Assembly (NCBI GenBank): GCA_017504795.1
Contig: JAFVQM010000015.1
Coordinates: 1-64,000, forward strand
DNA length: 64,000 bases
Reading direction: 5' to 3'
Source: Clostridia bacterium
Lineage (GTDB): Bacteria > Bacillota > Clostridia > Christensenellales > Borkfalkiaceae
The stretch's first letter is position 1, and the number at the start of each line of letters is the position of its first letter. Made by a program: the position numbers and the translations under genes. This document shows positions 11,296 through 44,300 of the stretch, piece by piece. The notes beneath the pieces were generated by a model. The model was not told where the DNA came from. It searched no databases and saw nothing but the letters and a program-made list of their open reading frames with translations.

Positions 11296-13140
11296 ATGAA
11301 AAGAAGAAATAACGTAAAAGTTAGAAACGCCTTTTTCCCTATAATGGGGGACGTTTTGGCAATATTCATCTCCGCGTCCATCGCGCTTATGGCGGAAGGG
11401 TATAAAGAACAACTTACCTATCCCGCAATGCTGTGGATAATGTTTAACGTTGTGCTTATAACGTTTTCCTTTTATTTTACGGGGCATTACTCGATAGTAT
11501 TTAAGATGATAAGTTCTTACGAAATCGTAAGAATAACCGCAACGATTATACTAATAGGTGGCTTAAACGTTTTATTTGCGGCGGTTTCCTTTCAAAAAGT
11601 AATATCTTTCCGTGGCGTTTTAATCTTTATGCTTTACGGTATGCTTTCAACGATAGCGCTACTTCTTTTAAGAAAAATTTCTTCGGTAATTCACCATAAC
11701 TATATAAATAAAAACGATAAGCGCACCCACGTTATGATAGTAGGCGCGGGTAGTGCGGGCGTTCAACTTATTAAAGAAATGAACGTTTTAGATAAAGTTA
11801 AATACGTTCCCGTTTGTATCGTTGACGACGATTTGGAAAAGCAAAACGAATACGTTGGCGGTATTAAAGTTTGCGGTACGACAGAAGACGTTGAAAAGTT
11901 AGTTAAAGAATATTCGGTTAAAGAAATTTTTATCACTATGCCTTCGGTTTCTAAAAAGCGCGTTAGCGATATCGTTAGAAAGTGCAAAAACACCGGTTGC
12001 GTAGTTAAAACGTTACCCGATTTATCTCAACTAGCCAACGGTAAAGTCACGCTTGACAACTTAAAGCCCGTTGACGTTAAAGACCTATTAGGTCGTGAGC
12101 AAACGGAAGTTAACCTTGAACAAATTAAAGGCTATATCAAAGGTAAAGTAGTTTTAGTAACGGGCGGTGGCGGTTCGATAGGCAGTGAACTTTGCCGTCA
12201 AATTATAACCTTTAACCCCGCTCAACTTATAATACTTGATAACTACGAAAACAATGCCTATGAAATCGAGCAGGAATTACAGCGCAAATACCCCCACCGC
12301 GACATACTCGCCCTTATTGCAAATATCCGCGAAATGGGTAAAATGGAAAAGGTTTTTTCTAAATACAAACCGCAAATAGTTTTCCACGCCGCTGCACATA
12401 AACACGTTCCGCTTATGGAAACTAGTCCTAACGAAGCCGTTAAAAACAACGTGTTCGGAACGCTAAATCTCGCCCGTTGTGCGGACAAGTTTGGGGTTGA
12501 AACTTTCGTTCAAATATCCACCGATAAGGCGGTTAACCCCACAAACATTATGGGTGCAACCAAGCGCATTTGCGAGATGATTATCCAAACGATAGGCAAG
12601 CACAGTAAGTCTACTAAGTTCGTTGCGGTAAGGTTTGGCAACGTTCTTGGTTCTAACGGTTCGGTAATACCGCTTTTCAAAAAACAAATAGAAGAAGGTG
12701 GCCCCGTTACCGTTACGCATAAAGACGTTGTTCGTTACTTTATGACTATTCAAGAAGCGGTTACCCTAGTTCTTCAAGCGGGCGCTTTTGCAAAAAGCGG
12801 TCAAATCTTCGTTCTAGATATGGGCGAACAAGTTCGAATTTACGACCTTGCTTGCAACCTTATAAGATTATCGGGGTACGAGCCCAACGTAGATATAGAT
12901 ATCGTTTGTACAGGTCTACGCCCAGGCGAAAAACTATACGAAGAAAGGCTTATGGACGAAGAGGGTTTACAAAAAACTTCTAACGGGCAAATAAGTATTG
13001 CTCGCCCTATAAATATCGACGAAGATAAACTTTGGACTATACTTGACCGTTTGTACAAAGAAGCCTACGAAGAAACCGAAAATATGAAATATTCGGTTAA
13101 GGAGTTGGTGGATACTTATACTATTGACGAACGTTTTTAA
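11296..13140 (+). CDS. Membrane nucleotide-sugar 4,6-dehydratase (CapD/PglF/WbpM type)
   Basis: 614 residues. About four transmembrane helices occupy residues 10-120. A first Rossmann fold begins at VGAGSAGVQL (near 150), and the catalytic SDR domain at GGGGSIGSELC (near 290). STDKAVNPTNIMGATKR carries Met in place of the usual catalytic Tyr before Lys, as in inverting UDP-GlcNAc 4,6-dehydratases. The C-terminal GLRPGEKLYEE is diagnostic. It makes a 4-keto-6-deoxy sugar nucleotide for surface glycan or glycoprotein synthesis. No other polysaccharide genes adjoin it. The stop codon overlaps a dispersed repeat. Confidence 0.88.
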   Translation: MKRRNNVKVRNAFFPIMGDVLAIFISASIALMAEGYKEQLTYPAMLWIMFNVVLITFSFYFTGHYSIVFKMISSYEIVRITATIILIGGLNVLFAAVSFQKVISFRGVLIFMLYGMLSTIALLLLRKISSVIHHNYINKNDKRTHVMIVGAGSAGVQLIKEMNVLDKVKYVPVCIVDDDLEKQNEYVGGIKVCGTTEDVEKLVKEYSVKEIFITMPSVSKKRVSDIVRKCKNTGCVVKTLPDLSQLANGKVTLDNLKPVDVKDLLGREQTEVNLEQIKGYIKGKVVLVTGGGGSIGSELCRQIITFNPAQLIILDNYENNAYEIEQELQRKYPHRDILALIANIREMGKMEKVFSKYKPQIVFHAAAHKHVPLMETSPNEAVKNNVFGTLNLARCADKFGVETFVQISTDKAVNPTNIMGATKRICEMIIQTIGKHSKSTKFVAVRFGNVLGSNGSVIPLFKKQIEEGGPVTVTHKDVVRYFMTIQEAVTLVLQAGAFAKSGQIFVLDMGEQVRIYDLACNLIRLSGYEPNVDIDIVCTGLRPGEKLYEERLMDEEGLQKTSNGQISIARPINIDEDKLWTILDRLYKEAYEETENMKYSVKELVDTYTIDERF

Positions 13141-13262
13141 GCCACCATTTCGGGCATTATGCGTCGTTTCTACTTAGTCGATAGACTTCGTTGACCAACA
13201 AGGTCTAACTCAGCCTATCGCCTTCGTGAGCCTAGCCTAACACCCAAACTGGTGTCTTAAAA
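13135..13262. repeat. Dispersed hairpin repeat, degenerate copy
   Basis: Starts at TTTTTAAGCCACC (containing the stop of the upstream gene) and ends with the near-complement GGTGTCTTAAAA. The centre has a GACC-loop-GGTC hairpin. Most divergent of six copies in the window. Confidence 0.55.
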
Positions 13263-13390
13263 TTTTAAGCCCTTATAAACGGCGCAATACTGCGTTACTG
13301 CCGTCGCCGAGTGTCTACAATGACCAAAAAGGTCTATTGTAACCACTCGTCTAGGCGAGCCTTGTCTTGCTTGTTTCTAACGTCTTAAAA
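13263..13390. repeat. Dispersed hairpin repeat
   Basis: Begins TTTTAAGCCCTTATAAACGG and ends TAACGTCTTAAAA, so the ends are inverted repeats. The centre is CAATGACC, A-rich loop, GGTCTATTG. The 3' half, with CACTCGTCTAGGCGAGCC and TTGCTTGTTTCTAA, is nearly identical to the copy ending at 28880. Noncoding. Confidence 0.75.
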
Positions 13391-13418
13391 TAGTAAATTG
13401 TTATAGGCTTAAAAAATT

Positions 13419-27222: not shown

Positions 27223-28608
27223 ATGTATTATTTAGCAGTTGATATAGGCGCTTCAAGTGGTAGGCATATTTTATGTAGTTACGAAAACGGCAAACTTTCC
27301 CTAAAAGAAATTTATCGTTTTTCTAACGGTGCAGTTAAAAAGAACGGCACTTTGGTGTGGGACGTGGAGTCGCTTTTTTCTAGCATCGTAGCGGGTATTA
27401 AAGAGTGTAAAAACCTAGGTATTATTCCGTATTCCGTAGGCATAGATACTTGGGGGGTAGACTACGCGCTTTTAGACGAGAACGACAATTTAATTGGTGA
27501 CGTTATCTCGTATCGTGACGCTAGGACCGAAAAGTCTATTTTAGAAGTTGAAAAGATTATCCCGTTTGAAGAAAGTTATAAAATAACGGGTATTCAACGC
27601 GCTCAGTATAACACCGTATACCAACTTTACGCCGATAAAATGAGTGGAAAACTTGCAAAGGCTAAAACTATGCTTTCTATTCCAGACTACTTGCATTTCT
27701 TGCTTAGCGGTGTAAAAAAGAACGAATATACTCATGCAACCACGTCAGGGCTCGTTGATGCAAAAACGGGCGACTGGTCGTTTGAAATGATAGATAAACT
27801 CGGCTACCCACGTGAAATATTCGGCAAACTCTATAACCCGGGCGAAGTTCTTGGCGACCTTAGAAAAGAAATCCAAGAAGAAGTTGGGTTTAATACCAAA
27901 GTAGTATTCCCTGCCTCGCACGATACGGCTAGCGCCGTTATGGCGGTTCCCGCAATTAAAGGCTGTCCCCTTTACATTTCAAGTGGCACTTGGTCACTAC
28001 TCGGCACGGAACTTGACGCGCCTATCACAAACGAAGAAGCGTTTAAGTTCAACGCCACCAACGAAGGTGGTTTTGGTGGTACGATAAGATTTTTAAGAAA
28101 CATAACGGGTATGTGGGCTATCCAAAGTGTTAAAAAAGAACTCGGTGGCAAGTACAGTTATGACGACCTTATGAATTTAGCAATAGATTGCAAATCAACA
28201 GGTAGTATTATCGACCTTAACGACAATAGGTTTTTAGCGCCCGAAAGTATGATAGGCGCAATCAAGGGTTACTGTGAAGAACACGGATTAGTAGTTCCCG
28301 AAACTGTTGGCGAGATTATGGACGTTATTTATCGCAGTTTAGCAACCATTTACGCCGAAACGATTATTGCAACCGAAAAAATCACGGGCAAAAAGTTTGA
28401 CGTTTTGAATATCGTAGGCGGTGGCAGTAAGGACGAATATCTTAACAAACTCACCAAAAAATACACGGGCAAAAGAGTTCTTGCAGGTCCTACCGAAGGC
28501 ACCGCAGTTGGTAACTTACTTGCGCAAATAATTTCCGCCGGCGAGATTAAAGACTTACACGAAGGTAGAGTGGTAGTTAAGAATTCCTTTGACGTAATCG
28601 AAATTTAA
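27223..28608 (+). CDS. rhaB: Rhamnulokinase
   Basis: FGGY kinase of 461 residues that phosphorylates L-rhamnulose. The N-terminal phosphate loop is VDIGASSGRHIL; GIDTWGVDYALLD, SYRDART, QRAQYNTVYQLYA, PASHDTASAVMAVP, SSGTWSLLG and NVGGGSKDEYLN follow, all typical of RhaB. AAGGAG lies upstream of ATG 27223. No rhaA, rhaD or regulator is adjacent, so the rhamnose genes are scattered. Together with the GH28 enzyme it suggests use of rhamnogalacturonan-type pectin. Confidence 0.92.
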   Translation: MYYLAVDIGASSGRHILCSYENGKLSLKEIYRFSNGAVKKNGTLVWDVESLFSSIVAGIKECKNLGIIPYSVGIDTWGVDYALLDENDNLIGDVISYRDARTEKSILEVEKIIPFEESYKITGIQRAQYNTVYQLYADKMSGKLAKAKTMLSIPDYLHFLLSGVKKNEYTHATTSGLVDAKTGDWSFEMIDKLGYPREIFGKLYNPGEVLGDLRKEIQEEVGFNTKVVFPASHDTASAVMAVPAIKGCPLYISSGTWSLLGTELDAPITNEEAFKFNATNEGGFGGTIRFLRNITGMWAIQSVKKELGGKYSYDDLMNLAIDCKSTGSIIDLNDNRFLAPESMIGAIKGYCEEHGLVVPETVGEIMDVIYRSLATIYAETIIATEKITGKKFDVLNIVGGGSKDEYLNKLTKKYTGKRVLAGPTEGTAVGNLLAQIISAGEIKDLHEGRVVVKNSFDVIEI

Positions 28609-28739
28609 TTTTTAAGCCGTTATTTGCTACGTCTATCTTCGTTACTGCTACGGTTTTGCGACCATCACAACCAAAAAGGTTAGTGCTGTCCGCAATCCCT
28701 TGCGAGCCTTGATATACTTGCAACTAACGTCTTAAAATA
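28609..28739. repeat. Dispersed hairpin repeat
   Basis: Begins TTTTTAAGCCGTTA right after the rhaB stop and ends CTAACGTCTTAAAATA. The centre is AACC, A-rich loop, GGTT, a compensated variant of GACC/GGTC in other copies. Confidence 0.7.
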
Positions 28740-28880
28740 TCTCTTAGCATAAGTTTAGGGTTTACCCTTAAACCAAGTTGTAATAGGGTTTGAGATAAGT
28801 GGACTTCGATGACTGATAAGGTCTATTGCAACCACTCGTCTAGGCGAGCCTTGTCTTGCTTGTTTCTAATGGCTTAAATA
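28740..28880. repeat. Dispersed hairpin repeat, tandem copy
   Basis: The 3' half matches the copy at 13263-13390 (AAGGTCTATTGCAACCACTC and the following 50 bases), ending TAATGGCTTAAATA. The 5' half is divergent and contains GTTTAGGGTTTACCCTTAAAC, a separate hairpin. Confidence 0.65.
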
Positions 28881-28906
28881 TACAAGTTTTAATAAACAAA
28901 TAAAAG

Positions 28907-28938
28907 AAACTCTCGTTTGAATAAAGCGAGAGTTTTTT
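28907..28938 (+). terminator. Hairpin terminator
   Basis: AAACTCTCG, 11-nt loop, CGAGAGTTTTTT. Ends transcription from rhaB after the two repeats. Confidence 0.75.
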
Positions 28939-29052
28939 GTTTGGAATTTGTGTTTTTCACGCAAATTTCAATTAGTTTGTATAAAATACGTATTGTGTAA
29001 GTTAGTATATTATGGTAAAATTTGATTAGAAACGAAACTTTTTGCTAAACGT

Positions 29053-29170
29053 ATAGAAATAGCGTAAAAAGTGATTAAATACACCTTATAGTCAAGTTGA
29101 CTATAAGGTTATAAAGGTGTAAAAACGCAATAATTTTTAGCATAGTATATTTTACTAAAGGAGTTAAGTC
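29053..29170 (+). promoter_or_regulatory. Duplicated regulatory region, copy 1, with 25-bp palindrome
   Basis: Near-identical to 29981-30105. Contains CCTTATAGTCAA and its exact complement around one G (29084-29108), and ends with a conserved AT-rich block, TAGCATAGTATATTTTAC, leading into AAGGAGTTA and the ATG. The palindrome could be an operator or an RNA stem. Confidence 0.6.
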
Positions 29171-29995
29171 ATGAAGAAAACTTTTGTAGATAGATTTTTT
29201 ACTGCGGTGGCAGTTATAAAATGGGTGTATGCTGCTTTATTAATATTTGCGCTTGCTTTTTTTGTGTGGCTTATACTTTTCTATGATAGTTGTGTTGTAA
29301 AAAATAAGGTTATTTGCCATAATGATGAGTATTTTATATATAGAGTTACAGAAGATAACAAGGTTCATGTAATAGGTTTAACGGATAAAGGCAAAGAACA
29401 AACGTATTTAATTATACCAGAGAAAATAGACGGGAAAACGGTTAATAATATAGGTTGTACAAATGCAACTCAAGTTACGGTTATTGAAGAAAAATATGGA
29501 AGTAAAGATTATGCTCAAATAAAAAGTGATAATTTGAAAAAAATCTTTTTAACCTCAGACGTGCAAATTATAAATGCTGGATTTACCGGTAAGGCTATAC
29601 AAAGTCTAAAATATGAAGGAACAATGTTTATATTAAATACAAGTAGTTGGAGTGGTGAAAAGGCTTATAAATCTTCATATGCAACCACAAGTATATCTAT
29701 AAGGGCAAACGTATCGTATTTTTACAATTACGGAAATTCGCCTAACGACGGATATTATTGGATAGATAATTACGATTACGGCGAAAAGGTAGAATTTATA
29801 CCGCCCGTGCCTACGCGTGCTGGTTACACCTTTGGCGGTTGGTATAAAGAAAGCGAGTGTATAAACAAGTGGGATTTTGAAATTGACAGGTTACCAGATT
29901 ATTTGTTTAGTGAAGGAACTCCACCAGATCCAGAAAATTATAGACCAATTTACCAAGAAACTAAATTATATGCAAAATGGATAGACATAGCGTAA
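29171..29995 (+). CDS. Membrane-anchored surface protein with InlB B-repeat
   Basis: 274 residues: short cytosolic tail, one strong transmembrane helix (12-38), a middle region with LRR_5-like character (IIPEKIDGKTVNNIGC, LKKIFLTSDVQIINAGF), then an InlB/Listeria-Bacteroides repeat with PTRAGYTFGGWYKE and a final KLYAKW. Such repeats sit on the outer surface of gut Firmicutes. Base composition is more AT-rich than neighbouring housekeeping genes. AAGGAG lies 9 nt before the ATG. Function unknown, probably adhesion. Confidence 0.7.
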   Translation: MKKTFVDRFFTAVAVIKWVYAALLIFALAFFVWLILFYDSCVVKNKVICHNDEYFIYRVTEDNKVHVIGLTDKGKEQTYLIIPEKIDGKTVNNIGCTNATQVTVIEEKYGSKDYAQIKSDNLKKIFLTSDVQIINAGFTGKAIQSLKYEGTMFILNTSSWSGEKAYKSSYATTSISIRANVSYFYNYGNSPNDGYYWIDNYDYGEKVEFIPPVPTRAGYTFGGWYKESECINKWDFEIDRLPDYLFSEGTPPDPENYRPIYQETKLYAKWIDIA

Positions 29996-30105
29996 AAAGT
30001 GATTAAATATACCTTATAGTCATTTTGACTATAAGATTATAAAAGGGCAGAAACAAAAAATGTAATAATTTTTAGCATAGTATATTTTACTAAAGGAGTT
30101 AGAGT
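29981..30105 (+). promoter_or_regulatory. Duplicated regulatory region, copy 2
   Basis: Repeats the layout of 29053-29170: ATAGCGTAAAAAGTGATTAA, the palindrome CTTATAGTCA/TGACTATAAG (30013-30035), then TAGCATAGTATATTTTAC and AAGGAGTTAG. It overlaps the last codons of the upstream gene. Confidence 0.6.
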
Positions 30106-30612
30106 ATGAAGAAAATTAAAAAAATATTATCAGCCCTAATAGCGTTAGCATTATTAATTAGTGTATCTATGCTTACCGCTTGTGATAGCAATTACGTACT
30201 TGTGGATCTTAAAACGGGTTACGAGCAAGGTTTAATAAATTATGACGATTTATTAAATATTGCTTATTATGGGGGACCTGTTTCTCTTAATCAAGATAAA
30301 TTTGCTAATAATTTTAAACCTAATCCAAAAGGCGAATTGAGTGAAGATATTAAAAAGTCAATTAAAAAATCGCTTGTAGATTATTGTAACAAAAAATATA
30401 ATAGGTTATTCACAACGAATAATGTAAAATTAGGAGAGTTTTATGGAGAATATAATGGGTATCTTGTTTTTGCGTTTTATGTAAGCTCTTATTTTAATAT
30501 TAATAACGGCAATGATTCCACTCTAGAAATACCTCTTTACAATGTGGGTGGATTTTATTTTAATGAAAAAGGACATAAAGAACTAGGTATTTATCTTTGG
30601 AAAAAATTGTAG
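30106..30612 (+). CDS. Small lipoprotein of unknown function
   Basis: 168 residues with signal peptide and lipobox LTAC. The mature part has no recognised family; it includes TGYEQGLINYDDLLNIAYY and a C-terminal GGFYFNEKGHKELGIYLWKKL-like end. AT-rich like its upstream neighbour, with which it shares a duplicated regulatory region, so the two are probably co-regulated. AAGGAG is 8 nt before the ATG. Confidence 0.7.
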   Translation: MKKIKKILSALIALALLISVSMLTACDSNYVLVDLKTGYEQGLINYDDLLNIAYYGGPVSLNQDKFANNFKPNPKGELSEDIKKSIKKSLVDYCNKKYNRLFTTNNVKLGEFYGEYNGYLVFAFYVSSYFNINNGNDSTLEIPLYNVGGFYFNEKGHKELGIYLWKKL

Positions 30613-30621
30613 GAGTGTTGT

Positions 30622-30741
30622 ATGAATATAACTAAAAATAAGTCATTAACGTTTTTATCATTATTATTTATTTCAGTTATTAGTTTTGTTATAAGCATAA
30701 CATGTTTTTGTATAATGAAAAACGGCTTAGCAATTTGCTAG
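30622..30741 (+). CDS. Possible 39-residue membrane peptide
   Basis: Short frame with GGAG 6 nt before the ATG, 9 nt after the lipoprotein stop. It encodes one hydrophobic helix (FLSLLFISVISFVISITCF) and ends inside the terminator stem. Size and composition fit a small membrane peptide, but there is no homology support. Confidence 0.4.
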   Translation: MNITKNKSLTFLSLLFISVISFVISITCFCIMKNGLAIC

Positions 30742-30757
30742 GCCGTTAGTTTTTTTA
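30721..30757. terminator. Bidirectional terminator
   Basis: AACGGCTTAGCA with a 3-nt loop and complement TGCTAGGCCGTT, T tract on the plus side and A tract upstream. Serves the convergent minus-strand gene as well. Confidence 0.8.
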
Positions 30758-32239
30758 CTTTTTAATACTTTTATCTTCGTAAACTGCCGTGCTGGTTGAT
30801 ATTATGCCGAGTTTTCTTAGCATTTTGCTATCAATGTGCGGTAGTAGTACCGACGTGTGCATCTGCGCACCGCTAAGCATAGGTAGTTTAGATATAGCAA
30901 GTTGAGCGTACTTATTCGTTACCGACGAACTCGATAACGCTATAAGCATTTCGTCAATATGTAGCCTTGGCGTTACTGACGAGAGATATTTTACTTTAAG
31001 TTCGGTTATAGGAACTATTCTTTCAGGAAGTAAAATTTTAATATCGTCACTAATTCCGGCAAGATGTTTAAGCGCGTTTATAAGCATAGCGCTTTGGCTT
31101 TCCAAAAGTTCGCTCGTTTTACCCGTTATTATAGTTCCGTCTTCAAGTTCGATAGCGCTACAAGGAACTCTTTCTTTTACGGTTTTTTGCGTGCAAGCAA
31201 CGTAAACCTTTCTATCTTCAACCGAAACGTTAAGCCCTTGCATAAGGTGGTAAATTTTCTCGCTTTCGTCAGGGTCTAAATTGTTTCTTCTCTCGTTTTC
31301 AAGCGCCTTGAAATAACGGCGTATAATCTCTTGTTTAGATGCTTCCCTACAAACTTCGTCGTCAGAAATGGCAAAGCCCGCCATATTAACGCCCATATCC
31401 GTAGGCGACTTATAGGGCGATATTCCCATAAGTTTTTCAAACAAGGTGTTAAGAACGGGGAAAATCTCCACGTCACGATTATAGTTAGTGGTGGTTACGC
31501 CGTAGGCAGATAAATGCCACGGGTCTATCATATTAACGTCATTAAGGTCGGCGGTTGCCGCTTCGTACGCCACGTTTACGGGGTGCTTTAAGGGTAAGTT
31601 CCAAATAGGAAAAGTTTCGTATTTAGCGTACCCCGATTTAATACCCCTTTTAAGGTCGTGATAAATGTTAGATAAGCAAGTAGCCATCTTACCGCTACCA
31701 GGGCCTGGGGCGGTTACTACTACTAAATTTCTAGAAGTTTCAATATAGTCGTTCTTGCCGTAGCCCTCGTCACTAATAATATGCTGAACGTTAGATGGAT
31801 ACCCTTTAATAAGATAGTGGCGGTAAACTTTGAGCCCCATCTTTTTAAGGCGCTTAGCAAATAGTACCGCGGGCTCGTTAGACTGGTCGAACTTAGATAA
31901 CACCACGCTACCAACTAATAATCCGTAACTTCTAAAAATACCGATAAGGCGCACCACGTCTTGATCGTAGGTTATGCCAAGGTCTGAGCGGACTTTATTT
32001 TTTTGTATATCAAGCGAGTTGATAACTATAACGATTTCAGCCTTGTCTTTAAGTTTAGAAAGCATTTTAATCTTATTGTCAGGCGCAAAGCCGGGAAGAA
32101 CGCGCGCAGCGTGATTATCGTCAAAAAGTTTACCGCCGAATTCAAGGTACAACTTTCCGCCGAACTCGTTTATGCGTTCGGAAATCTTTTCAGATTGCAT
32201 AGATAAATACTTCTCGCTGTCAAACCCGATTTTCATCAT
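30755..32239 (-). CDS. DUF1846 family protein
   Basis: 494 residues, cytosolic, full length for DUF1846. Characteristic segments: GFDSEKYLSMQSEKISERI at the start, YLEFGGKLFDD, VVTAPGPGSGKMATCLSN (a P-loop-like stretch), HPVNVAYEAATADLNDVN and LPMLSGAQMHTSV. The family is widespread in anaerobic Firmicutes, and its biochemical role is not firmly established. AGGGG lies 7 nt before ATG 32239; a second ATG follows directly. Single gene. Confidence 0.85.
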   Translation of the reverse strand: MMKIGFDSEKYLSMQSEKISERINEFGGKLYLEFGGKLFDDNHAARVLPGFAPDNKIKMLSKLKDKAEIVIVINSLDIQKNKVRSDLGITYDQDVVRLIGIFRSYGLLVGSVVLSKFDQSNEPAVLFAKRLKKMGLKVYRHYLIKGYPSNVQHIISDEGYGKNDYIETSRNLVVVTAPGPGSGKMATCLSNIYHDLKRGIKSGYAKYETFPIWNLPLKHPVNVAYEAATADLNDVNMIDPWHLSAYGVTTTNYNRDVEIFPVLNTLFEKLMGISPYKSPTDMGVNMAGFAISDDEVCREASKQEIIRRYFKALENERRNNLDPDESEKIYHLMQGLNVSVEDRKVYVACTQKTVKERVPCSAIELEDGTIITGKTSELLESQSAMLINALKHLAGISDDIKILLPERIVPITELKVKYLSSVTPRLHIDEMLIALSSSSVTNKYAQLAISKLPMLSGAQMHTSVLLPHIDSKMLRKLGIISTSTAVYEDKSIKK

Positions 32240-32341
32240 ACGTTTACCCCTAAGATTAAATACCTTTATATTTTACCACACTTAACTACTTTAATCAACA
32301 CAAAGCGCGAAAAAATAATTTTTTTCTTGTCAACTAAACCG

Positions 32342-32370
32342 TTTACATAAATTAAAAATAAGTATATAAT
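32342..32370 (+). promoter_or_regulatory. Promoter of mrp-yqeY
   Basis: TTTACA at 32342-32347, 17-bp spacer, TATAAT at 32365-32370. Confidence 0.7.
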
Positions 32371-32401
32371 AAATACGTATCACTAAATTTTTGGAGGACA
32401 T

Positions 32402-33223
32402 ATGAGTACTTGTAATCACGACTGTTCGTCTTGCAATAAAGGCGACTGCAAGGATAGAGATTTTACCGTAAAGGCAAAGCCCGGCACGGAATTTAAGAAA
32501 ATTATCGCCGTTATGAGCGGTAAAGGTGGGGTAGGCAAGTCGCTTATCACAACGCTTTTAGCGGTTGAATCAAACAAGCGCGGTCTTAAAACCGCCGTTT
32601 TAGATGCGGACGTTACAGGGCCGTCAATCCCCAAAGCATTCGGTCTTACTGAAAACGACAGGGCGCAAGGTTCTGACGACGGGCTTTTCCCCGTAGAAAC
32701 CAGGTCGGGCGTTAAAATTATGAGTATGAACTCGTTACTTGAAGAACCGTCAATGCCCGTAGTTTGGCGCGGTCCTATAATATCGGGCGTTGTAAAGCAG
32801 TTTTATACCGACGTTTTGTGGGGTAAAAACGACGTTATGTTTATCGATATGCCCCCAGGCACGGGTGACGTTCCTTTAACCGTTTTTCAAAGTTTCAAAA
32901 TTGACGGTATCGTCGTAGTAACCACCCCGCAAGACCTTGTTTCTATGATAGTTGAAAAGTCGGTAAAAATGGCTAATATGATGAACGTTCCTATCGTTGG
33001 CATAGTTGAAAATATGAGTTACGCCGTGTGTCCTGACTGTAAAAAGCCGATATACATTTTCGGCAAGGGTAAAACTGACGAGATTGCAAGCGAATACGGG
33101 CTTGAAGTTTTAGCAAAACTTCCTATAAACCCCGAAATTGCAACGCTTATCGACAAGGGCTTGGCGGACGAGATTGACACGTCATCCCTTAAAAACGCAA
33201 TAGATAAAATTATAAAGGAGTAG
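32402..33223 (+). CDS. mrp: Mrp/NBP35-type Fe-S cluster carrier ATPase
   Basis: 273 residues. A short Cys cluster (CNHDCSSCNKGDC) precedes the deviant Walker A GKGGVGKS near residue 43. DADVTGPSIP, FIDMPPGTGDVPLT and a C-terminal CPDC complete the family pattern. It carries and transfers [4Fe-4S] clusters to apoproteins in the cytosol as an ATP-dependent dimer. The N-terminal cysteines make it resemble the NBP35 subgroup. GGAGG lies before the ATG. yqeY follows after 4 nt. Confidence 0.9.
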   Translation: MSTCNHDCSSCNKGDCKDRDFTVKAKPGTEFKKIIAVMSGKGGVGKSLITTLLAVESNKRGLKTAVLDADVTGPSIPKAFGLTENDRAQGSDDGLFPVETRSGVKIMSMNSLLEEPSMPVVWRGPIISGVVKQFYTDVLWGKNDVMFIDMPPGTGDVPLTVFQSFKIDGIVVVTTPQDLVSMIVEKSVKMANMMNVPIVGIVENMSYAVCPDCKKPIYIFGKGKTDEIASEYGLEVLAKLPINPEIATLIDKGLADEIDTSSLKNAIDKIIKE

Positions 33224-33227
33224 TATT

Positions 33228-33653
33228 ATGACGCTTGAACAATTCAAAAAAGAAAAAATCGAGGCTATGAAACAAAAGGATAAAGACAAGGTTTCAGCCC
33301 TAAACGTAATTATAACTAAAATTATGGCGCTCACTATCGAAAGGCGCGCAAGCGGTTTAGAAGTAACGGAAGGTGACGTTGACAGTCTACTTCAAAAAGC
33401 CGAAAAGGAACTTACCGAAGAGCGCGAAGGCTTTATCAAAGCAGGTAGAGAAGAAAACGTTGTGTCTTTAACTAACCAAATCGAAGTTATCAAAAAATAT
33501 CTTCCTAAACTTTTGTCGGAAGACGAAATTAAAGAGATTATTTCCACCCTTGAAGATAGGTCGATGCCGTCTATTATGAAACATTTTAAGCAAAACTACC
33601 AAGGTAAAGTGGATATGAGAGTGGTCAGCGCGCTTGCAAAGGCTCAAAACTAA
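33228..33653 (+). CDS. yqeY: GatB/YqeY domain protein
   Basis: 141 residues. Matches YqeY: an N-terminal KDKDKVSALNVIITKI helix, then EVTEGDVDSLLQKAEKELTEE, a YLPKLLSEDEIKEII helix and the C-terminal MRVVSALAKAQN. It resembles the tail of the GatB amidotransferase subunit, and its stand-alone role is unclear. AAAGGAG precedes the ATG; co-transcribed with mrp. Confidence 0.88.
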   Translation: MTLEQFKKEKIEAMKQKDKDKVSALNVIITKIMALTIERRASGLEVTEGDVDSLLQKAEKELTEEREGFIKAGREENVVSLTNQIEVIKKYLPKLLSEDEIKEIISTLEDRSMPSIMKHFKQNYQGKVDMRVVSALAKAQN

Positions 33654-33692
33654 CAAAAAATAGTCTATAAGGCGGAAATTTTAATAAAACTA

Positions 33693-33721
33693 TTGATATT
33701 TTTGTAAAAATACGCTATACT
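33693..33721 (+). promoter_or_regulatory. Promoter of the 33777 gene
   Basis: TTGATA at 33693-33698, 17-bp spacer, TATACT at 33716-33721. Confidence 0.7.
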
Positions 33722-33776
33722 TAATAACGTAAAAGTCAAACGGCTTTTTAAGGTATTAAAACGAAGGTATAAATTT

Positions 33777-34739
33777 ATGGCATACGACAATAAAGATTTT
33801 ATTCAAGAAGACGTGTTGTTCAAAACACAGCCCAAAAAGGTAGAAGAAGTTTCTTCACCCGTTGAGAGTTTCGATAGTTCTGACTTTGGCTCGGAAGTAT
33901 TGTTTTCTAGTCCCGTAAACAGGGGTGGCGAAATTGAAGAATTTACTTTCGACGAAGAATCGCCCATTGAAAATCTTTTAATGGAGAACGACGAAGTTGT
34001 TGAAGAAGCGCTTTTCGTAAACGAGCGCCCCGCAGTATCAAGCATTGAAGAACTTTCGCCGATAGAAGAACTCTCCGTTTTCGAAGAGCCTATCGAAGTT
34101 GTTGAAGAGCCCGTTATCGCCGAAGAAAACCTAGAATTTTCAGAGCCCAACCGCCCAACTACCGTATCCGAAGAAGTTTTATTTAGCGGTGAAGAAGAAC
34201 CCACGACTGCTGAAATTGACAATTCGCAAACCGTTGTTTCCCCCGAACTTACCGCACTTGGTTCGGCTAGTGACGATTTAGCAGTTGAAAAGGCTGAAAA
34301 GCCCGTTTATATCGAGAAAAACTTTGCTCAAAAGTTCTTAGAAGCGGATAAAGAAATTCTTAAACGTTATGATGAACTTAAAAACATTATCCTTTTATAC
34401 AAAGGTGTAAAATCTCGTGTATCCAACGATTTTGACAGTTTTAATATGGGAAGAACTCAACTTTTCAAACTTGGTTTCTCTACCCAGTCGTTAAAACTTT
34501 ACTTAAACCTTGATTATAGCGAAGTTGAACCAAGGCTCAAATGTAAAGACGTTTCGCACAAAAAAGCCTACGCCCAAGTTCCTGTATTTTTAAGAATTAA
34601 ATCGCCAAGGGCTATGCGAAACGCTAAATACCTTATCGAAAAAGTAGTTCAAAAACACGGCCTTAAAGAAAACCCCAAAGCCGTTTACGTAGATAGTATT
34701 CAAATACTTAAAGAGAAGGCTAAGACTTACAACAAATAA
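33777..34739 (+). CDS. Acidic-linker protein with the LKLYLN domain
   Basis: 320 residues, soluble. Residues 1-180 are acidic and low-complexity (many Glu, Ser, Val; VVEEPVIAEENLEF style), probably disordered. The C-terminal ~135 residues carry a folded domain: KNIILLYKGVKSRVSNDFDSF, GRTQLFKLG, LKLYLNLDY, CKDVSHKKA, VPVFLRIKS and KYLIEKVVQKHGLKE. The same domain occurs in the polytopic protein at 23413-25713. I believe it recurs in clostridial proteins without assigned function. Own promoter; a dispersed repeat begins at its stop codon. Confidence 0.7.
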   Translation: MAYDNKDFIQEDVLFKTQPKKVEEVSSPVESFDSSDFGSEVLFSSPVNRGGEIEEFTFDEESPIENLLMENDEVVEEALFVNERPAVSSIEELSPIEELSVFEEPIEVVEEPVIAEENLEFSEPNRPTTVSEEVLFSGEEEPTTAEIDNSQTVVSPELTALGSASDDLAVEKAEKPVYIEKNFAQKFLEADKEILKRYDELKNIILLYKGVKSRVSNDFDSFNMGRTQLFKLGFSTQSLKLYLNLDYSEVEPRLKCKDVSHKKAYAQVPVFLRIKSPRAMRNAKYLIEKVVQKHGLKENPKAVYVDSIQILKEKAKTYNK

Positions 34740-34871
34740 TTTTTAATCCGTTATAAACTTCGTTATGCTTTGTTCTTTGCGTTTTTGTGAAATTCCTGCG
34801 ACCGACAAGGTCGCTCCCTTCCACAAAAACTGCAAACGCCTCGCCTAACTCGTTTCTAACGTCTTAAAATA
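34739..34871. repeat. Dispersed hairpin repeat, subfamily 2
   Basis: Begins TTTTTAATCCGTTATAAAC and ends TAACGTCTTAAAA. TTTGCGTTTTTGTG pairs with CACAAAAACTGCAAA around an inner GCGACC/GGTCGC hairpin. Close relative of the copy at 36191. Confidence 0.75.
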
Positions 34872-34914
34872 TCGCTTAGTATAGGCAAATTATAAAAGTA
34901 TTTATAAAAAAAAT

Positions 34915-34946
34915 AAAACACGGTGCTTTGACTAGCACTGTGTTTT
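34915..34946. terminator. Bidirectional terminator
   Basis: AAAACACGGTGCT, 6-nt loop, AGCACTGTGTTTTTT between convergent genes. Confidence 0.8.
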
Positions 34947-34953
34947 TTGTTTG

Positions 34954-35388
34954 TTATAGGTGTTTTTTTAATCTTTCTTCAAAGTCTTCTTCCATCGCTA
35001 GTAGGCGCTTTGCAAATTCCATTGCTTTATCGTCGGTTAAGCACTCGGTTTCGTTTATGATTTTAGTAAGTTCAGTTATTCCCATAACCGTACCCTTTAT
35101 CATAATTTCAGCGATATGACTGTGCGTTGAGTCAAACGCCGTGTTCATTTTAATAGCCGACCACATCATTGCCTTTTTCATAGCGCCGATATCTTTAATT
35201 TCATATCCCTTTTCGCGCATATACGAAGTAAGGTCAGAAATAAAACTTTCATAGCCTTGATACTGGTCGTGAATTTCGTTTCGTAAAGCGTCGTTTTCAA
35301 TTTCGGGCATAACGTCTGAAATTGATTGAAGCGCAATGCTAGCGCCACGATAAACTTCGCCTATAAAGTCAAGATTACAATTTTCCAT
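34954..35388 (-). CDS. Predicted four-helix-bundle (ferritin-like, DUF2383-type) protein
   Basis: 144 residues, all-helical and acidic. Segments such as YRGASIALQSISDVMPEI, EIHDQYQGYESFISDLTSYMREKGYE and DSTHSHIAEIMIKGTVMGI look like the helices of DUF2383/ferritin-like bundles with spaced His and Glu. Metal binding is possible but not proven. GGGGG lies 8 nt before the ATG. It is divergent from the rplU leader. Confidence 0.6.
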   Translation of the reverse strand: MENCNLDFIGEVYRGASIALQSISDVMPEIENDALRNEIHDQYQGYESFISDLTSYMREKGYEIKDIGAMKKAMMWSAIKMNTAFDSTHSHIAEIMIKGTVMGITELTKIINETECLTDDKAMEFAKRLLAMEEDFEERLKKHL

Positions 35389-35456
35389 AAAAATACCCCC
35401 ATATATTGTTATGTAGTTATAATGCGCTACCTAAAATTAAATATGCGTTAAAATAG

Positions 35457-35485
35457 TTGACAAAAAAATTAAAATTTTGTAAAAT
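35457..35485 (+). promoter_or_regulatory. Promoter of rplU-rpmA
   Basis: TTGACA at 35457-35462, 17-bp spacer, TAAAAT at 35480-35485. Confidence 0.85.
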
Positions 35486-35491
35486 ACCTAG

Positions 35492-35565
35492 GAACCGCTC
35501 GGAAAGGGCTCCGGAAGTGTGGATTATCCACCGCCTTAAATCACGGCGAGATTAGACAGGAGGAG
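35492..35565 (+). ncRNA. L21 leader (ribosomal protein autoregulatory RNA)
   Basis: Structured leader between the promoter and rplU: GGAACCGCTCGG, AGGGCTCC, GTGGATTATCCAC stem, then CGCCTT...AAATCACGGCG. Position and general form match the Rfam L21 leader of Firmicutes, where excess L21 represses its own operon. Identified by eye, not by covariance search. Confidence 0.7.
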
Positions 35566-35572
35566 TACTAAA

Positions 35573-35884
35573 ATGTACGCAATTATCGAGAACGGCAATA
35601 AGCAATACAAAGTTGCGGTAGGCGATATCGTTAAACTTGAAAAACTTGATGCCGAAGTTGGCGCGAGCGTAGAATTCAACGCATTGTTCGTGACTGACGG
35701 AAAGAGTGTAAAAGTAGGCAAGGACGCGAAGGCGTTCAAAGTAGCAGGTGAAGTTCTTGCACAAGACAAGGCTAAGAAGATTATCGTCTTCAAATACAAG
35801 TCTAAAAAGAACATCAGAAAGAAACAAGGTCATAGACAACCTTTTACGGCTGTTAAGATTACCGAGATTAGTAAAGGAGAATAA
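35573..35884 (+). CDS. rplU: Ribosomal protein bL21
   Basis: 103 residues: [18 protein letters not shown] at the start, then [16 protein letters not shown], and the C-terminal [19 protein letters not shown], which contacts 23S rRNA. GGAGGAG lies 8 nt before the ATG. Controlled by the upstream leader. rpmA follows after 2 nt; the protease gene prp that normally lies between them in Firmicutes is absent. Confidence 0.97.
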
Positions 35885-35886
35885 TT

Positions 35887-36159
35887 ATGTTTTTGATTAA
35901 ATTATTTGCTCATAAAAAAGGTGTTGGTAGTTCAAGAAACGGCCGTGACAGTGAAGCAAAACGCTTAGGCATTAAGCGTGCGGACGGTCAAAAGGTTTTA
36001 GCAGGCTCAATTCTCGTTAGACAAAGGGGTACTAAATTCTACCCTGGTAAAAACGTTGGTTGCGGTAAAGATTACACTTTATTTGCAACGGTTAACGGCG
36101 TTGTTAGATACGAAAGAGTTGGTAAGGATAAAAAGCAAGTTTCGGTTTACGAAGCATAA
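35887..36159 (+). CDS. rpmA: Ribosomal protein bL27 with N-terminal extension
   Basis: 90 residues. The body [21 protein letters not shown] is standard bL27. Seven extra residues, MFLIKLF, precede Ala-His; in Firmicutes a comparable extension ending in LQFF or similar is removed by the protease Prp. Here the site would be KLF|A, a shortened variant. AAAGGAG lies before the ATG. The mature N-terminus reaches the peptidyl-transferase centre, so processing matters for function. Confidence 0.95.
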
Positions 36160-36165
36160 AACAAA

Positions 36166-36195
36166 AAGCGTAGGAAAGTTTCCTACGCTTTTTTT
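36166..36195 (+). terminator. Terminator after rpmA
   Basis: AAAAAGCGTAGGAAA and TTTCCTACGCTTTTTTT; the T tract merges with the start of the next dispersed repeat. Confidence 0.85.
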
Positions 36196-36366
36196 AAGCC
36201 CTTATAAACGGCGTTATGCTTTGTTCTTTGCACTTTTGCGAAATTCCTACGACCGACAAGGTCGCTTCCTTCCGCAAAAGCACAAACGCCTCGCCTAACT
36301 TGTTTCTAACGGCTTATTTAATTGATTAGTTGAGCCTTGCCTAATACCGCAACTAACGGCTTAAAT
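36191..36366. repeat. Dispersed hairpin repeat, subfamily 2, extended
   Basis: Begins TTTTTAAGCCCTTATAAACG. CTTTTGCG pairs with CGCAAAAG around ACGACC/GGTCGC, with bases that differ from the 34739 copy in matching pairs. Ends first at TAACGGCTTA (36308-36317) and again at TAACGGCTTAAA (36354-36365). Confidence 0.75.
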
Positions 36367-36407
36367 TCAAGTTATAAAATTCTATATAGAAAATCTCCGC
36401 AACGCAA

Positions 36408-36445
36408 ACCGTTAGTTTGCATATCACTATGCGTTAGCATAATAT
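36408..36445. repeat. Tandem small hairpins
   Basis: GCAAAC-CGTTA-GTTTGC followed by TATGC-GTTA-GCATA, separated by ATATCAC. Two neighbouring stems with GTTA loops just after the 3' end of the minus-strand gene at 36458. Confidence 0.5.
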
Positions 36446-36457
36446 AACTTATATACG

Positions 36458-37294
36458 TTATGCTTTTTTCACGATTTCTCCCGTTTGGGCGTTTTGAAAA
36501 ATTACGTAATAGCCGTCTTTAAGTGGGTTATAGGGCGATAAAGGTATAAACTCGCAGTATGAAGATAGTTCGGGTGGAGAAGATAGATAATTTCCTATAA
36601 CGGCGTAGCAAACGTATTTAATAGCGCCTAGTTCGTGAACTATTCCAACAGAATAAAACCTATCCTTATCGTAATTTATTTTAACGAAATCGCTGTTTGG
36701 AATAAGTGAGCAAAGGCTATAATCACGCTCGTAACTATCCAAAATTTTATCTAATTTTTCTCTAACGGTTTGGTAGTAGTTTTCCTTGTCACAATTGCCA
36801 TTTCCGTTTTCATATAATGTAGTTCCGCCCGTTTCTTCCGTTTTTGGCGGGCTATTTTTATTTTGGCTATCCCCGTAGCCATTTTGGTTACAAACGCTTT
36901 GTTTTTCAATTTCTGCCTCGTAATAGTTTTCGGTGGCGATTATCTCGTCGTCGTAAGAACTTTGCTTTTTGTTTTCAAGAAGATAATTTATCCCTTTACT
37001 TTCCCCAAAAGAACCGAATAGAAGTGGGGTATCGCCGTCTAATAAAACGGCTGAAAACCCGTTTTGCACACCGCTTGAAACTTTAACTTCAAATCGTAGC
37101 GCGGTCGGTTTATAAACGCAAACGCCATCGCCGAAAACGTAGTAAATAAGAGTGTAATTACCCTTGTTAAAACCACTGCTAAAAATCTCTACTTTTACGG
37201 TTGATATGCCGTTTTCACTTTCAAATTTCATCGTGCAGTTATCTTTTCCGCTAAGCCTATCAAGCACCAAAAACTTTCTAAAATAATTACTCAT
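36458..37294 (-). CDS. Conserved-looking clostridial hypothetical protein
   Basis: 278 residues, no signal peptide. N-terminal part (SNYFRKFLVLDRLSGKDNCTMKF-like start, GISTVKVEIF) looks like a beta-rich domain that ends near GSFGESKGIN. A low-complexity linker (150-190) follows, then a C-terminal domain with YSLCSLIPNSDFVKINYDKDRFYSVGIVHE. The start at 37294 has AGGGTG upstream; longer frames lack one. Two-domain layout with a disordered link is common among uncharacterised clostridial proteins, but I do not recognise the family. Confidence 0.65.
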   Translation of the reverse strand: MSNYFRKFLVLDRLSGKDNCTMKFESENGISTVKVEIFSSGFNKGNYTLIYYVFGDGVCVYKPTALRFEVKVSSGVQNGFSAVLLDGDTPLLFGSFGESKGINYLLENKKQSSYDDEIIATENYYEAEIEKQSVCNQNGYGDSQNKNSPPKTEETGGTTLYENGNGNCDKENYYQTVREKLDKILDSYERDYSLCSLIPNSDFVKINYDKDRFYSVGIVHELGAIKYVCYAVIGNYLSSPPELSSYCEFIPLSPYNPLKDGYYVIFQNAQTGEIVKKA

Positions 37295-42355: not shown

Positions 42356-43405
42356 ATGAAAATTCTCTCTTACGATATTGAAAGCACTACGGGTAGTCAT
42401 AGTGACGCTAGTATGTGCACTTTCGGTTACTGTATAGCCGACGAAAAATTTAATATTTTAGAGCAAAGAGATATCGTTATGCGCCCTTACACTAGGCGAT
42501 ACGAGCCTAGAATTAAACTCCATTACGACAAGAGTTTTATCAAGGCGCAACAGCCCTTTCCCTTTTGGTACGAAGAAATAAAAGGGCTTTTTGCTAGTTG
42601 CGATTTAATAATAGGCTTTTCCGTTTCTAACGACGTTGACTTTCTCAACAACGCCTGCCAAGTTTATAAACTTGACAAAATAGTTTACGACTTTGTAGAC
42701 GTGCAACTTCTTCACAAAACCGTTTACAAAAAGCAAAATATGTGCGGTTTAGAAGGCGTTGCTAACGAGTTTGGTATCGAATATCTTGCTCACCGCAGTG
42801 ATGAGGACGCGCGCGTCACCTTGCTAGTTCTTAAACGCATGGCAAGTGATTTAGGGCTTAGTGTTGACGAACTTTTAAGAAGGTTTCATATAACCCCCGG
42901 CGTTAACAGTCAAACGGAAACATTTCCTTGCACTAACGGAACGTACACAAAAAAGGAAATTAACTACCTTATCAACCTATTTATCGAAAAAAACCGTCGC
43001 CACAGCAGGCGTTATAAGGGTGGGCTTTCGTATAAATCGTTTGCTTTTTCAGACGAAATTCGCTACGGCGATATCGACCTATATCGCAAGATGATAAAGC
43101 GCATTTACGACCTTAACGGTAGGGTTGGGCAAATTGAAAATAGCAACCACTTCGTATCAACACAAGGCGAGTTTACCGATAAGGAAAAGAAGTCTTTAAC
43201 GCTTAGAAACGAAGGCAGAAAAAGAATTACCCCTATAACGCTTGAAAAAATGCTTTCAATGCTTGGGGAACTTCCAAATATAGATTTTTCAAGTGACGTT
43301 GAACTTGTAAAACAACATAGGCGCGAAGTTAGAAAAAAGCGCGAACAAGCGCGCTTAGAGAGAAAGGCGCAATTTGAAAAACAACGCGAAAAAAAGCAAG
43401 GCTAA
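42356..43405 (+). CDS. DEDD-type 3'-5' exonuclease domain protein
   Basis: 349 residues. Residues 1-170 form a DnaQ-like exonuclease: motif I SYDIEST (Asp6, Glu8), motif II GFSVSNDVDFL and motif III AHRSDEDAR. The C-terminal half is basic, with charged helices (RRHSRRYKGGLSYK, RREVRKKREQARLERK), likely nucleic-acid binding. Role in repair or RNA trimming unknown. No clear ribosome binding site precedes the ATG at 42356; a TAAAAT lies only 2 nt upstream, too close to be its -10 box. The terminator of the upstream gene is 25 nt away. Confidence 0.75.
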   Translation: MKILSYDIESTTGSHSDASMCTFGYCIADEKFNILEQRDIVMRPYTRRYEPRIKLHYDKSFIKAQQPFPFWYEEIKGLFASCDLIIGFSVSNDVDFLNNACQVYKLDKIVYDFVDVQLLHKTVYKKQNMCGLEGVANEFGIEYLAHRSDEDARVTLLVLKRMASDLGLSVDELLRRFHITPGVNSQTETFPCTNGTYTKKEINYLINLFIEKNRRHSRRYKGGLSYKSFAFSDEIRYGDIDLYRKMIKRIYDLNGRVGQIENSNHFVSTQGEFTDKEKKSLTLRNEGRKRITPITLEKMLSMLGELPNIDFSSDVELVKQHRREVRKKREQARLERKAQFEKQREKKQG

Positions 43406-43427
43406 GCCTTGCTTTTTCTATTTATAA
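43391..43427. repeat. 37-bp direct repeat, left copy (contains a terminator)
   Basis: AAAAAGCAAGGC-TAA-GCCTTGCTTTTT followed by CTATTTATAA, identical to 44264-44300. It ends the exonuclease gene (the stop codon is inside) and the minus-strand XRE gene. Confidence 0.85.
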
Positions 43428-44263: not shown

Positions 44264-44300
44264 AAAAAGCAAGGCTAAGCCTTGCTTTTTCTATTTATAA
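44264..44300. repeat. 37-bp direct repeat, right copy
   Basis: Exact repeat of 43391-43427, 873 bp downstream; also a terminator for the 129-residue gene. Confidence 0.85.

What the first reader, a model, noticed from the sequence alone, without database searches (positions are those of the whole stretch)
34739..36366. Dispersed intergenic hairpin family with compensatory base changes
Copies at 34739-34871 and 36191-36317 share ends (TTTTTAA-CC.TTATAAAC and TAACG.CTTA) and a long stem. In one the outer stem is GTTTTTGTG/CACAAAAAC, in the other CTTTTGCG/CGCAAAAG: both arms changed together. The inner RACC/GGTY hairpin is kept in all six copies of the window, including an AACC/GGTT version at 28609. 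Structure rather than sequence seems to be selected, as for a MITE, REPIN or structured RNA. I do not recognise it.
Basis: partly seen in the sequence, partly recalled or inferred. Interest (0 to 1): 0.72.

Follow-up and report, generated by a model that had tools for sequence, protein, structure and literature searches.

The report
Replication-oriented DNA hairpins at gene ends
Bacterial genomes related to gut Clostridia carry up to about ninety copies each of a 130-base hairpin whose shape is kept while its sequence varies; most copies start at the stop codon of a gene and nearly all point the way the chromosome is replicated, so they likely spread as folded single-stranded DNA by an enzyme still unknown.

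Summary
The window has six copies of a ~130-nt imperfect hairpin; the own genome 72, the nine genomes of the genus 3-94 each, and 81 of 121 family genomes at least one match. Covariation is strong: 90.7% of 4416 cells paired against 73.6% shuffled, 34 of 39 pairs with double changes. No Rfam match at gathering score.

Two stronger facts followed. (1) Orientation is tied to replication: 193 copy clusters on 52 contigs, one exception; element strand agrees with GC skew in 39 of 41 stretches, and on both copy-bearing contigs found to cross a clear skew switch it flips with it. (2) Copies start at stop codons of leading-strand genes: 28 of 546 leading, 0 of 171 lagging. Sites can be empty in relatives; orthologous sites mostly hold versions no more alike than random.

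Best reading: a DNA-level, structure-recognised palindromic element, likely moved or exchanged as folded ssDNA at the fork. It resembles IS200/IS605 derivatives and integron attC sites but is a member of neither: Y1 transposase in 0 of 9 genus genomes, none of five typed recombinases an integron integrase, attC box order reversed. The enzyme was not found; an RNA role is not excluded.

The parts
34739..34870 (+). copy 5 of the hairpin element (GAAATTCCTGCGACC core type), starts at the stop codon of the 320-aa gene 33777-34739
   Evidence: model R1 127.3 bits; RNA fold z -7.6; ORF end
34871..34886 (+). 3' tail motif ATCGCTTAGTATAGGC behind the hairpin
   Evidence: seen directly; a rough pattern for such tails fits 30 of 112 copies, 3% of shuffled flanks
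36190..36320 (+). copy 6, behind a terminator-like hairpin that follows rpmA (L27); its left T-run is shared with that hairpin
   Evidence: model R1 116.5 bits; rpmA by TIGR00062
36321..36366 (+). decayed extra right-arm module (GCAACTAACGGCTTAAA)
   Evidence: read from sequence
13133..13263 (+). copy 1, abutting copy 2
   Evidence: R1 match, E 6.7e-15
13261..13391 (+). copy 2
   Evidence: R1 131.1 bits
28608..28738 (+). copy 3 (AACC/GGTT tip), at the stop codon of an FGGY carbohydrate kinase gene
   Evidence: R1 122.8 bits; Pfam FGGY
28758..28880 (+). copy 4, degenerate tandem unit
   Evidence: R1 46.2 bits

Best explanation
A family of about 130-bp imperfect-palindrome DNA elements starts mostly at stop codons of leading-strand genes, lies in one orientation relative to replication, and likely spreads and is exchanged as a folded single DNA strand at the replication fork. 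By GC skew the written (+) strand is the one that equals the lagging-strand template. The fold, with its kept T.C mismatches, internal loops and one-base bulge, is predicted to be what an unidentified protein recognises, so the helices may drift in sequence while staying paired. Entry would be next to TAA on the lagging-strand template, which would explain both the orientation and the position behind stop codons of leading-strand genes. Template switching or gene conversion probably then re-matches arms and swaps versions between sites. The elements carry no gene; the enzyme is not identified.
For: Covariation: 34 of 39 pairs with double changes, score 0.420 against 0.142 shuffled and at most 0.092 slid. 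Polarity: 288 copies in six genomes; 193 clusters on 52 multi-cluster contigs, 1 on the minority strand, P 2e-21 if strand merely followed the 76:24 coding bias. GC skew on the contig's element strand is positive in 39 of 41 stretches. Other genera: 80 clusters on 28 contigs (first 150 of 316 matches shown), 3 minority, 2 of them on contigs that cross a skew switch: G075:C10 eight minus copies, then one plus, skew turning at ~170 kb; G031:C4 six minus, then three plus, skew turning at ~140 kb and positive to the contig end; dnaA within 10 kb in both. Position: upstream gene co-oriented in 67 of 75 distinct copies, its end within -20 to +15 nt of the element in 49 of 75; 28 of 546 leading genes against 0 of 171 lagging carry a copy behind the stop, p 9e-4. 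Gain/loss: purH-purD filled in G001, empty in G000 and G004; purF-purM filled in G005 and G000, empty in G004 (gene names by Pfam). Versions: 17 orthologous pairs (73-95% aa), elements within the random range in 15 (six of the pairs come from four loci). Host-matched outer stems in L009 and L024, by eye.
Against: No mobilising enzyme: Y1_Tnp 0 of 9 genus genomes, RVT_1 1 of 9, ordinary genes only (14 of 14 ORFs) between eight close pairs of copies. No single-stranded intermediate, excision or target duplication was seen. The pur differences could be losses. Occupied sites are shared between species beyond chance (2 of 4 against 0 of 66, p 0.0025), which also fits inheritance with selection. 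Of 35 copies (of 112) whose outermost left arm departs from TTTAA, only 6 are fully re-paired there. Wobble counts (G.T 30, A.C 23) equal those of this group's terminator-like hairpins (29:22), so they do not tell DNA from RNA. The - strand folds better in 109 of 113 copies, and that is the leading-strand template, where ssDNA is scarcer. Possible exceptions: G001:C3:38075, G038:C4:15476, and G000:C37:71392, where skew falls to -0.045 while the copy keeps the contig's strand. In the genus the copies do not flip at dnaA, so replication direction there rests on GC skew.
Confidence: 0.45

Rival explanations
1. A structured 3'-UTR RNA (mRNA stabiliser, processing or termination element) carried by leading-strand genes; the fold is kept because the transcript needs it.
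For: Upstream gene co-oriented in 67 of 75 copies and usually ending at the element; strong conserved fold with loops and bulge; inserted inside pur operons; terminator-like hairpins abut or lie in the left arm of some copies; shared sites.
Against: Does not explain why 0 of 171 lagging-strand genes carry one or why 1 of 193 clusters is on the minority strand. Some copies stand behind a terminator-like hairpin and would be little transcribed. Eight of 75 upstream genes run the other way, some of these being doubtful ORFs. No Rfam match at gathering score.
Confidence: 0.25
2. Not mobile now: an old family whose arms are kept complementary by replication template switching (quasipalindrome correction, strand-biased) and whose versions are shuffled by gene conversion; no protein recognises the fold.
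For: Double changes with hardly any intermediate, e.g. A-T 58/G-C 43/T-A 9 with 1 wobble and 2 unpaired; right arm matches the host gene end in L009 and L024; versions differ at orthologous sites. Template switching is reported to make compensatory changes and to be commoner on the leading strand in E. coli (PMC8794818, passages seen).
Against: It should erase the T.C mismatch kept in 102 of 115 copies and the internal loops. It does not by itself confine copies to one orientation, nor make new copies.
Confidence: 0.2
3. Integron-like folded recombination sites (attC analogues) used by the resident XerS-like tyrosine recombinase, spread over the chromosome instead of in one cassette array.
For: Shared features: folded structure over sequence, position behind stop codons, one orientation; in 25 of 30 sedentary integrons the recombinogenic attC strand is on the leading-strand template (PMC5371416, passages seen), where here the better-folding strand lies. 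A ~350-aa tyrosine recombinase is found in 7 of 9 genus genomes by length, with a contig-end fragment in G000; two of these and one of G031 were typed, nearest XerS.
Against: None of five typed recombinases reaches the integron integrase cut-off (best 77.8 against 265 bits). Box order is GTT...AAC, the reverse of attC (sequence, rule recalled). Copies lie kilobases to tens of kilobases apart with ordinary genes between. XerS is the usual dimer-resolution enzyme (recalled).
Confidence: 0.05

Closest known systems
IS200/IS605 family and its non-autonomous derivatives (REP/REPIN-RAYT; PATE, recalled)
   Same: Hairpins recognised as ssDNA; orientation follows replication because excision and insertion use the lagging-strand template (PMC5371812 and PMC6006769, passages seen).
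   Different: Element is about 130 nt with seven helices, most covarying, not a 20-40 nt hairpin with a fixed foot; Y1 protein in 0 of 9 genus genomes.
Bacterial MITE-like palindromic repeats: ERIC, RUP, Correia/NEMIS (and BOX)
   Same: About 100-200 bp, mostly intergenic, stable full-length stem-loop, many copies; transcripts of some affect neighbours (PMC2229807, passages seen; BOX from a search listing).
   Different: Those are described by terminal repeats and target duplications; here helices vary with pairing kept, orientation is replication-bound, and the start is at stop codons.
Integron attC sites
   Same: Structure over sequence, common orientation, strand placement relative to replication (PMC5371416); position behind the CDS (recalled).
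   Different: No integron integrase found, reversed box order, dispersed over the chromosome, tandem units without cassettes.
Replication template-switch (quasipalindrome) mutation
   Same: Gives multi-base compensatory changes in one step (PMC8794818).
   Different: A mutational process, not an element; does not explain kept mismatches or polarity.

Membership tests
REPIN/REP-RAYT | Y1 (TnpA-REP) transposase gene in the genome | tested here: not met
   PF01797: 0 of 9 genus genomes, 45 of 121 in the family; the MAGs are 84-94% complete, so a miss in all nine is unlikely
REPIN/REP-RAYT | short (20-40 nt) hairpin with 5' GT[AG]G foot, paired in inverted order | tested here: not met
   consensus of 115 distinct matches shows one ~130-nt hairpin without such a foot; foot rule from PMC6006769
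MITE (DDE type) | fixed terminal inverted repeats shared with an autonomous transposon | tested here: inconclusive
   TTTAA left arm in 77 of 112 copies; no autonomous partner in eight intervals between close copies; transposon families other than Y1, RVT_1 and tyrosine recombinases were not searched
MITE (DDE type) | target-site duplication | tested here: inconclusive
   filled and empty pur sites compared by eye; no clear duplication, relatives only 80-91% alike
Integron attC | integron integrase in the genome | tested here: inconclusive
   five tyrosine recombinases from four genomes typed, none over the TIGR02249 cut-off; the other PF00589 matches in 19 genomes were not typed
Integron attC | RYYYAAC first, GTTRRRY last on the cassette strand | tested here: not met
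   here GTTATGC lies left and GCCTAAC right; rule recalled
Known structured RNA | Rfam family match | tested here: not met
   whole window at gathering score: two tRNAs only; 28500-36500 to E 5: only sub-threshold hits touching copies, e.g. L20_leader 27.1 bits against 58.7
Known structured RNA | transcribed, function at RNA level | not testable with these tools
   no RNA-seq
IS200/IS605-like ssDNA mobility (works like) | orientation follows replication | tested here: met
IS200/IS605-like ssDNA mobility (works like) | ssDNA intermediate and HUH chemistry | not testable with these tools
   needs experiment; no Y1 gene in 9 genus genomes

The most novel reading that the evidence does not exclude
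A new class of structure-coded, replication-polar mobile DNA: folded lagging-strand hairpins dispersed over the whole chromosome, entering at TAA of leading-strand genes, rebuilding their outer arm from the host gene end and exchanging versions at fixed sites, run by a recombinase that is neither Y1 nor an integron integrase.
Probability: 0.25. Interest if true: 0.85.

Novelty: new variant of a known kind. Interest (0 to 1): 0.68.

Why it matters
Here the orientation of a dispersed repeat relative to replication is nearly absolute (1 of 193 clusters against), holds in several genera, and is joined with strong structural covariation and an anchor at stop codons. That would give a natural test bed for how DNA secondary structure at the fork drives insertion, and for how compensatory changes arise almost without intermediates. 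It also warns that covariation alone does not prove an RNA: such a family could be mistaken for a regulatory RNA. The copies could serve as strand markers to orient contigs of these uncultured genomes.

Tried and rejected
Phage origin: a right-end pattern matched 15 viral contigs, none with a full element by a regular-expression scan; the 17-letter pattern is short, so this is a weak negative. Plasmid and phage record collections were not searched.

Retroelement: RVT_1 in 2 of 28 genomes, 1 of 9 in the genus.

Origin at dnaA: in the genus the copies do not flip at dnaA (G003:C13, G000:C37); in G031 and G075 dnaA lies near the switch.

Wobble asymmetry as a DNA/RNA test: tRNA stems gave 26 G.T to 0 A.C of 315 pairs (15 tRNAs), terminator-like hairpins 29:22 of 1926, the element 30:23 beside 2345 Watson-Crick cells with one fixed T-G column pair left out.

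Void or corrected counts: one search used loci without turning them to the element's strand; one search turned them but counted some copies twice (91 loci, 82 of 90 upstream genes co-oriented); removes the double counts (76 copies, 67 of 75) and is the one used.

Autonomous partner: all 14 ORFs of at least 90 aa in eight intervals between close copies match ordinary families.

Papers: seven searches listed nothing on this family; only open-access PMC text is held, so I claim no more than that.

Full report
WHAT IS THERE. The window holds six + strand copies of one element: 13133-13263, 13261-13391, 28608-28738, 28758-28880, 34739-34870, 36190-36320. A DNA search with one copy gives 37 matches in the own genome (1.40 Mb, 39 contigs). 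I aligned 52 copies picked by regular expression, so a favourable start, built covariance model R1 and found 72 matches in the own genome and 3-94 in each of the nine genomes of the genus, 501 in all. In the family 81 of 121 genomes and 15 of 18 genera have at least one match (stricter filters, at most 28 candidates scored per genome, many matches weak). The four named relatives of a neighbouring gene are 'Clostridia bacterium' MAGs from ruminant gut; the own genome itself is unnamed.

STRUCTURE. On 135 matches (115 distinct) from 100 of the fetched sources I counted a 39-pair hairpin: 90.7% of 4416 cells pair (shuffled 73.6%), 741 cells changed on both sides (shuffled 225), covariation 0.420 (shuffled 0.142; slid versions 0.058-0.092). 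The structure was partly derived from these sequences, which favours the unslid version. Kept unpaired features: T opposite C in 102 of 115 in the first helix and 84 of 115 in the second, a one-base bulge below the RACC/GGTY tip, and a mostly five-base A-rich loop. As DNA the - strand folds better in 109 of 113, as RNA in 104 of 113.

POLARITY. Listing the copies of G000, G001 and G003-G006 (288 on 82 contigs), 193 clusters more than 1 kb apart on 52 multi-cluster contigs show one minority cluster, at G001:C3:38075. G002, G007 and G008 were seen only in part; none of the 32 multi-copy contigs among the first 150 rows is mixed. The contig's element strand is the G-rich one in 39 of 41 stretches; the other two are slightly negative: G004:C1 1-20 kb, without a copy, and G000:C37 60-80 kb (0.019 and -0.045 per 10 kb), whose copy at 71392 keeps the contig's strand. 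That block is mostly antisense genes next to dnaA, so it may be an exception or a local effect. Coding bases agree with the element strand in only 76% (567147 of 741861). In seven genomes of four other genera (150 of 316 matches shown) 80 clusters on 28 contigs give three minority members: G038:C4:15476 is a true exception; G031:C4 and G075:C10 cross a GC-skew switch and the orientation turns there. G004:C6 also changes skew but has no copy. So the polarity is bound to replication as read from GC skew, and the written strand equals the lagging-strand template.

POSITION. Of 76 distinct copies with 1.5-kb flanks, the upstream gene is co-oriented in 67 of 75 and the downstream gene in 46 of 75; the upstream gene ends within -20 to +15 nt of the element in 49 of 75 (simple ORF calls, some of the eight opposite ones doubtful but kept). 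In a second count, 76 of 113 copies have a co-oriented ORF ending within 60 nt before or about 30 nt inside the element; the stop lies at -5 to +3 in 35, further inside (usually the element's own TAA) in 29, at 4-15 in 1 and beyond 15 in 11. In 41 stretches from contigs chosen because they carry copies, 28 of 546 leading and 0 of 171 lagging genes have a co-oriented copy behind the stop (p 9e-4). In L009 and L024 the gene's last codons form the left outer arm and the right arm is complementary to them (read by eye); but of 35 copies with a deviating outermost left arm only 6 are fully re-paired there.

DYNAMICS. purH-purD carries a copy in G001 and none in G000 and G004 (90-91% aa); purF-purM carries one in G005 and G000, none in G004 (gene names by Pfam on G000). 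These could be gains or losses. Among 70 reciprocal-best gene pairs leading in both the own and the G003/G004 stretches, element-bearing own genes had an element at the ortholog in 2 of 4 cases, element-free ones in 0 of 66 (p 0.0025): sites are shared beyond chance, on small numbers. Yet at 17 orthologous pairs (flanking protein 73-95% identical; six pairs from four loci; loci fetched because they carry copies) the elements are at or below the 70th percentile of random pairs in 15 and near the 95th in 2: versions are mostly exchanged or re-inserted. Tandem units occur at many sites.

ENZYME. Y1_Tnp in 0 of 9 genus genomes, RVT_1 in one. A ~350-aa tyrosine recombinase occurs in 7 of 9 genus genomes by length; those of G001, G003 and G031 are nearest XerS but under its cut-off (188-206 of 267 bits), and the G001 gene adjoins an HflX-like GTPase gene. 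No typed recombinase is an integron integrase. Genes between close copies are ordinary. Other transposase families were not searched.

MECHANISM. Shown: conserved fold, orientation, stop-codon anchor, variable occupancy, differing versions. Inferred: folded ssDNA on the lagging-strand template as the mobile or exchanged form; TAA-side entry; re-matching of arms by template switching. Literature: IS200/IS605 orientation follows replication (PMC5371812, PMC6006769), attC strand placement (PMC5371416), template switching making compensatory changes (PMC8794818), small bacterial repeats (PMC2229807); of each I saw passages only.

VERDICT. I file it as a new variant of dispersed palindromic repeats, not as REPIN, attC or known RNA.

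Noticed in passing
window 29004-29180 and 29932-30115: Two 79-90% identical upstream regions (about 180 nt, with an inverted repeat CCTTATAGTCA..TGACTATAAGG) precede two adjacent genes at 29171 (Flg_new repeat protein) and 30106; a duplicated promoter/leader.
   Followed up: no
window 36380-36460; L059 reverse strand around 9.0-9.6 kb: A second, different family of short repeated hairpin-like strings (GCATATCACTATGCGTTAGCATAATATAAC and similar) lies beside some copies.
   Followed up: no
G000:C37, G003:C13, G026:C17: dnaA lies between copies of one orientation and runs against it, while in G031 and G075 it is near the skew switch: dnaA may have left the origin in these genera (skew not measured in G026).
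   Followed up: partly
G001:C3:38075 and G038:C4:15476: Two copies against the local polarity; the first stands about 0.1 kb from a normally oriented copy.
   Followed up: no
L059, L060, L104, L129, L138 (left arms): Some copies have a terminator-like hairpin inside the left outer arm (TTTTTAAGACATAAAAAAG-hairpin-CTTTTTTATTCCG), making a side branch.
   Followed up: partly
window 43391-43427 and 44264-44300: Two identical 37-nt bidirectional terminator-like hairpins 873 bp apart.
   Followed up: no
G004:C6 (223717 bp): A long contig without any R1 match that changes GC-skew sign; copies are not spread evenly over the chromosome.
   Followed up: no
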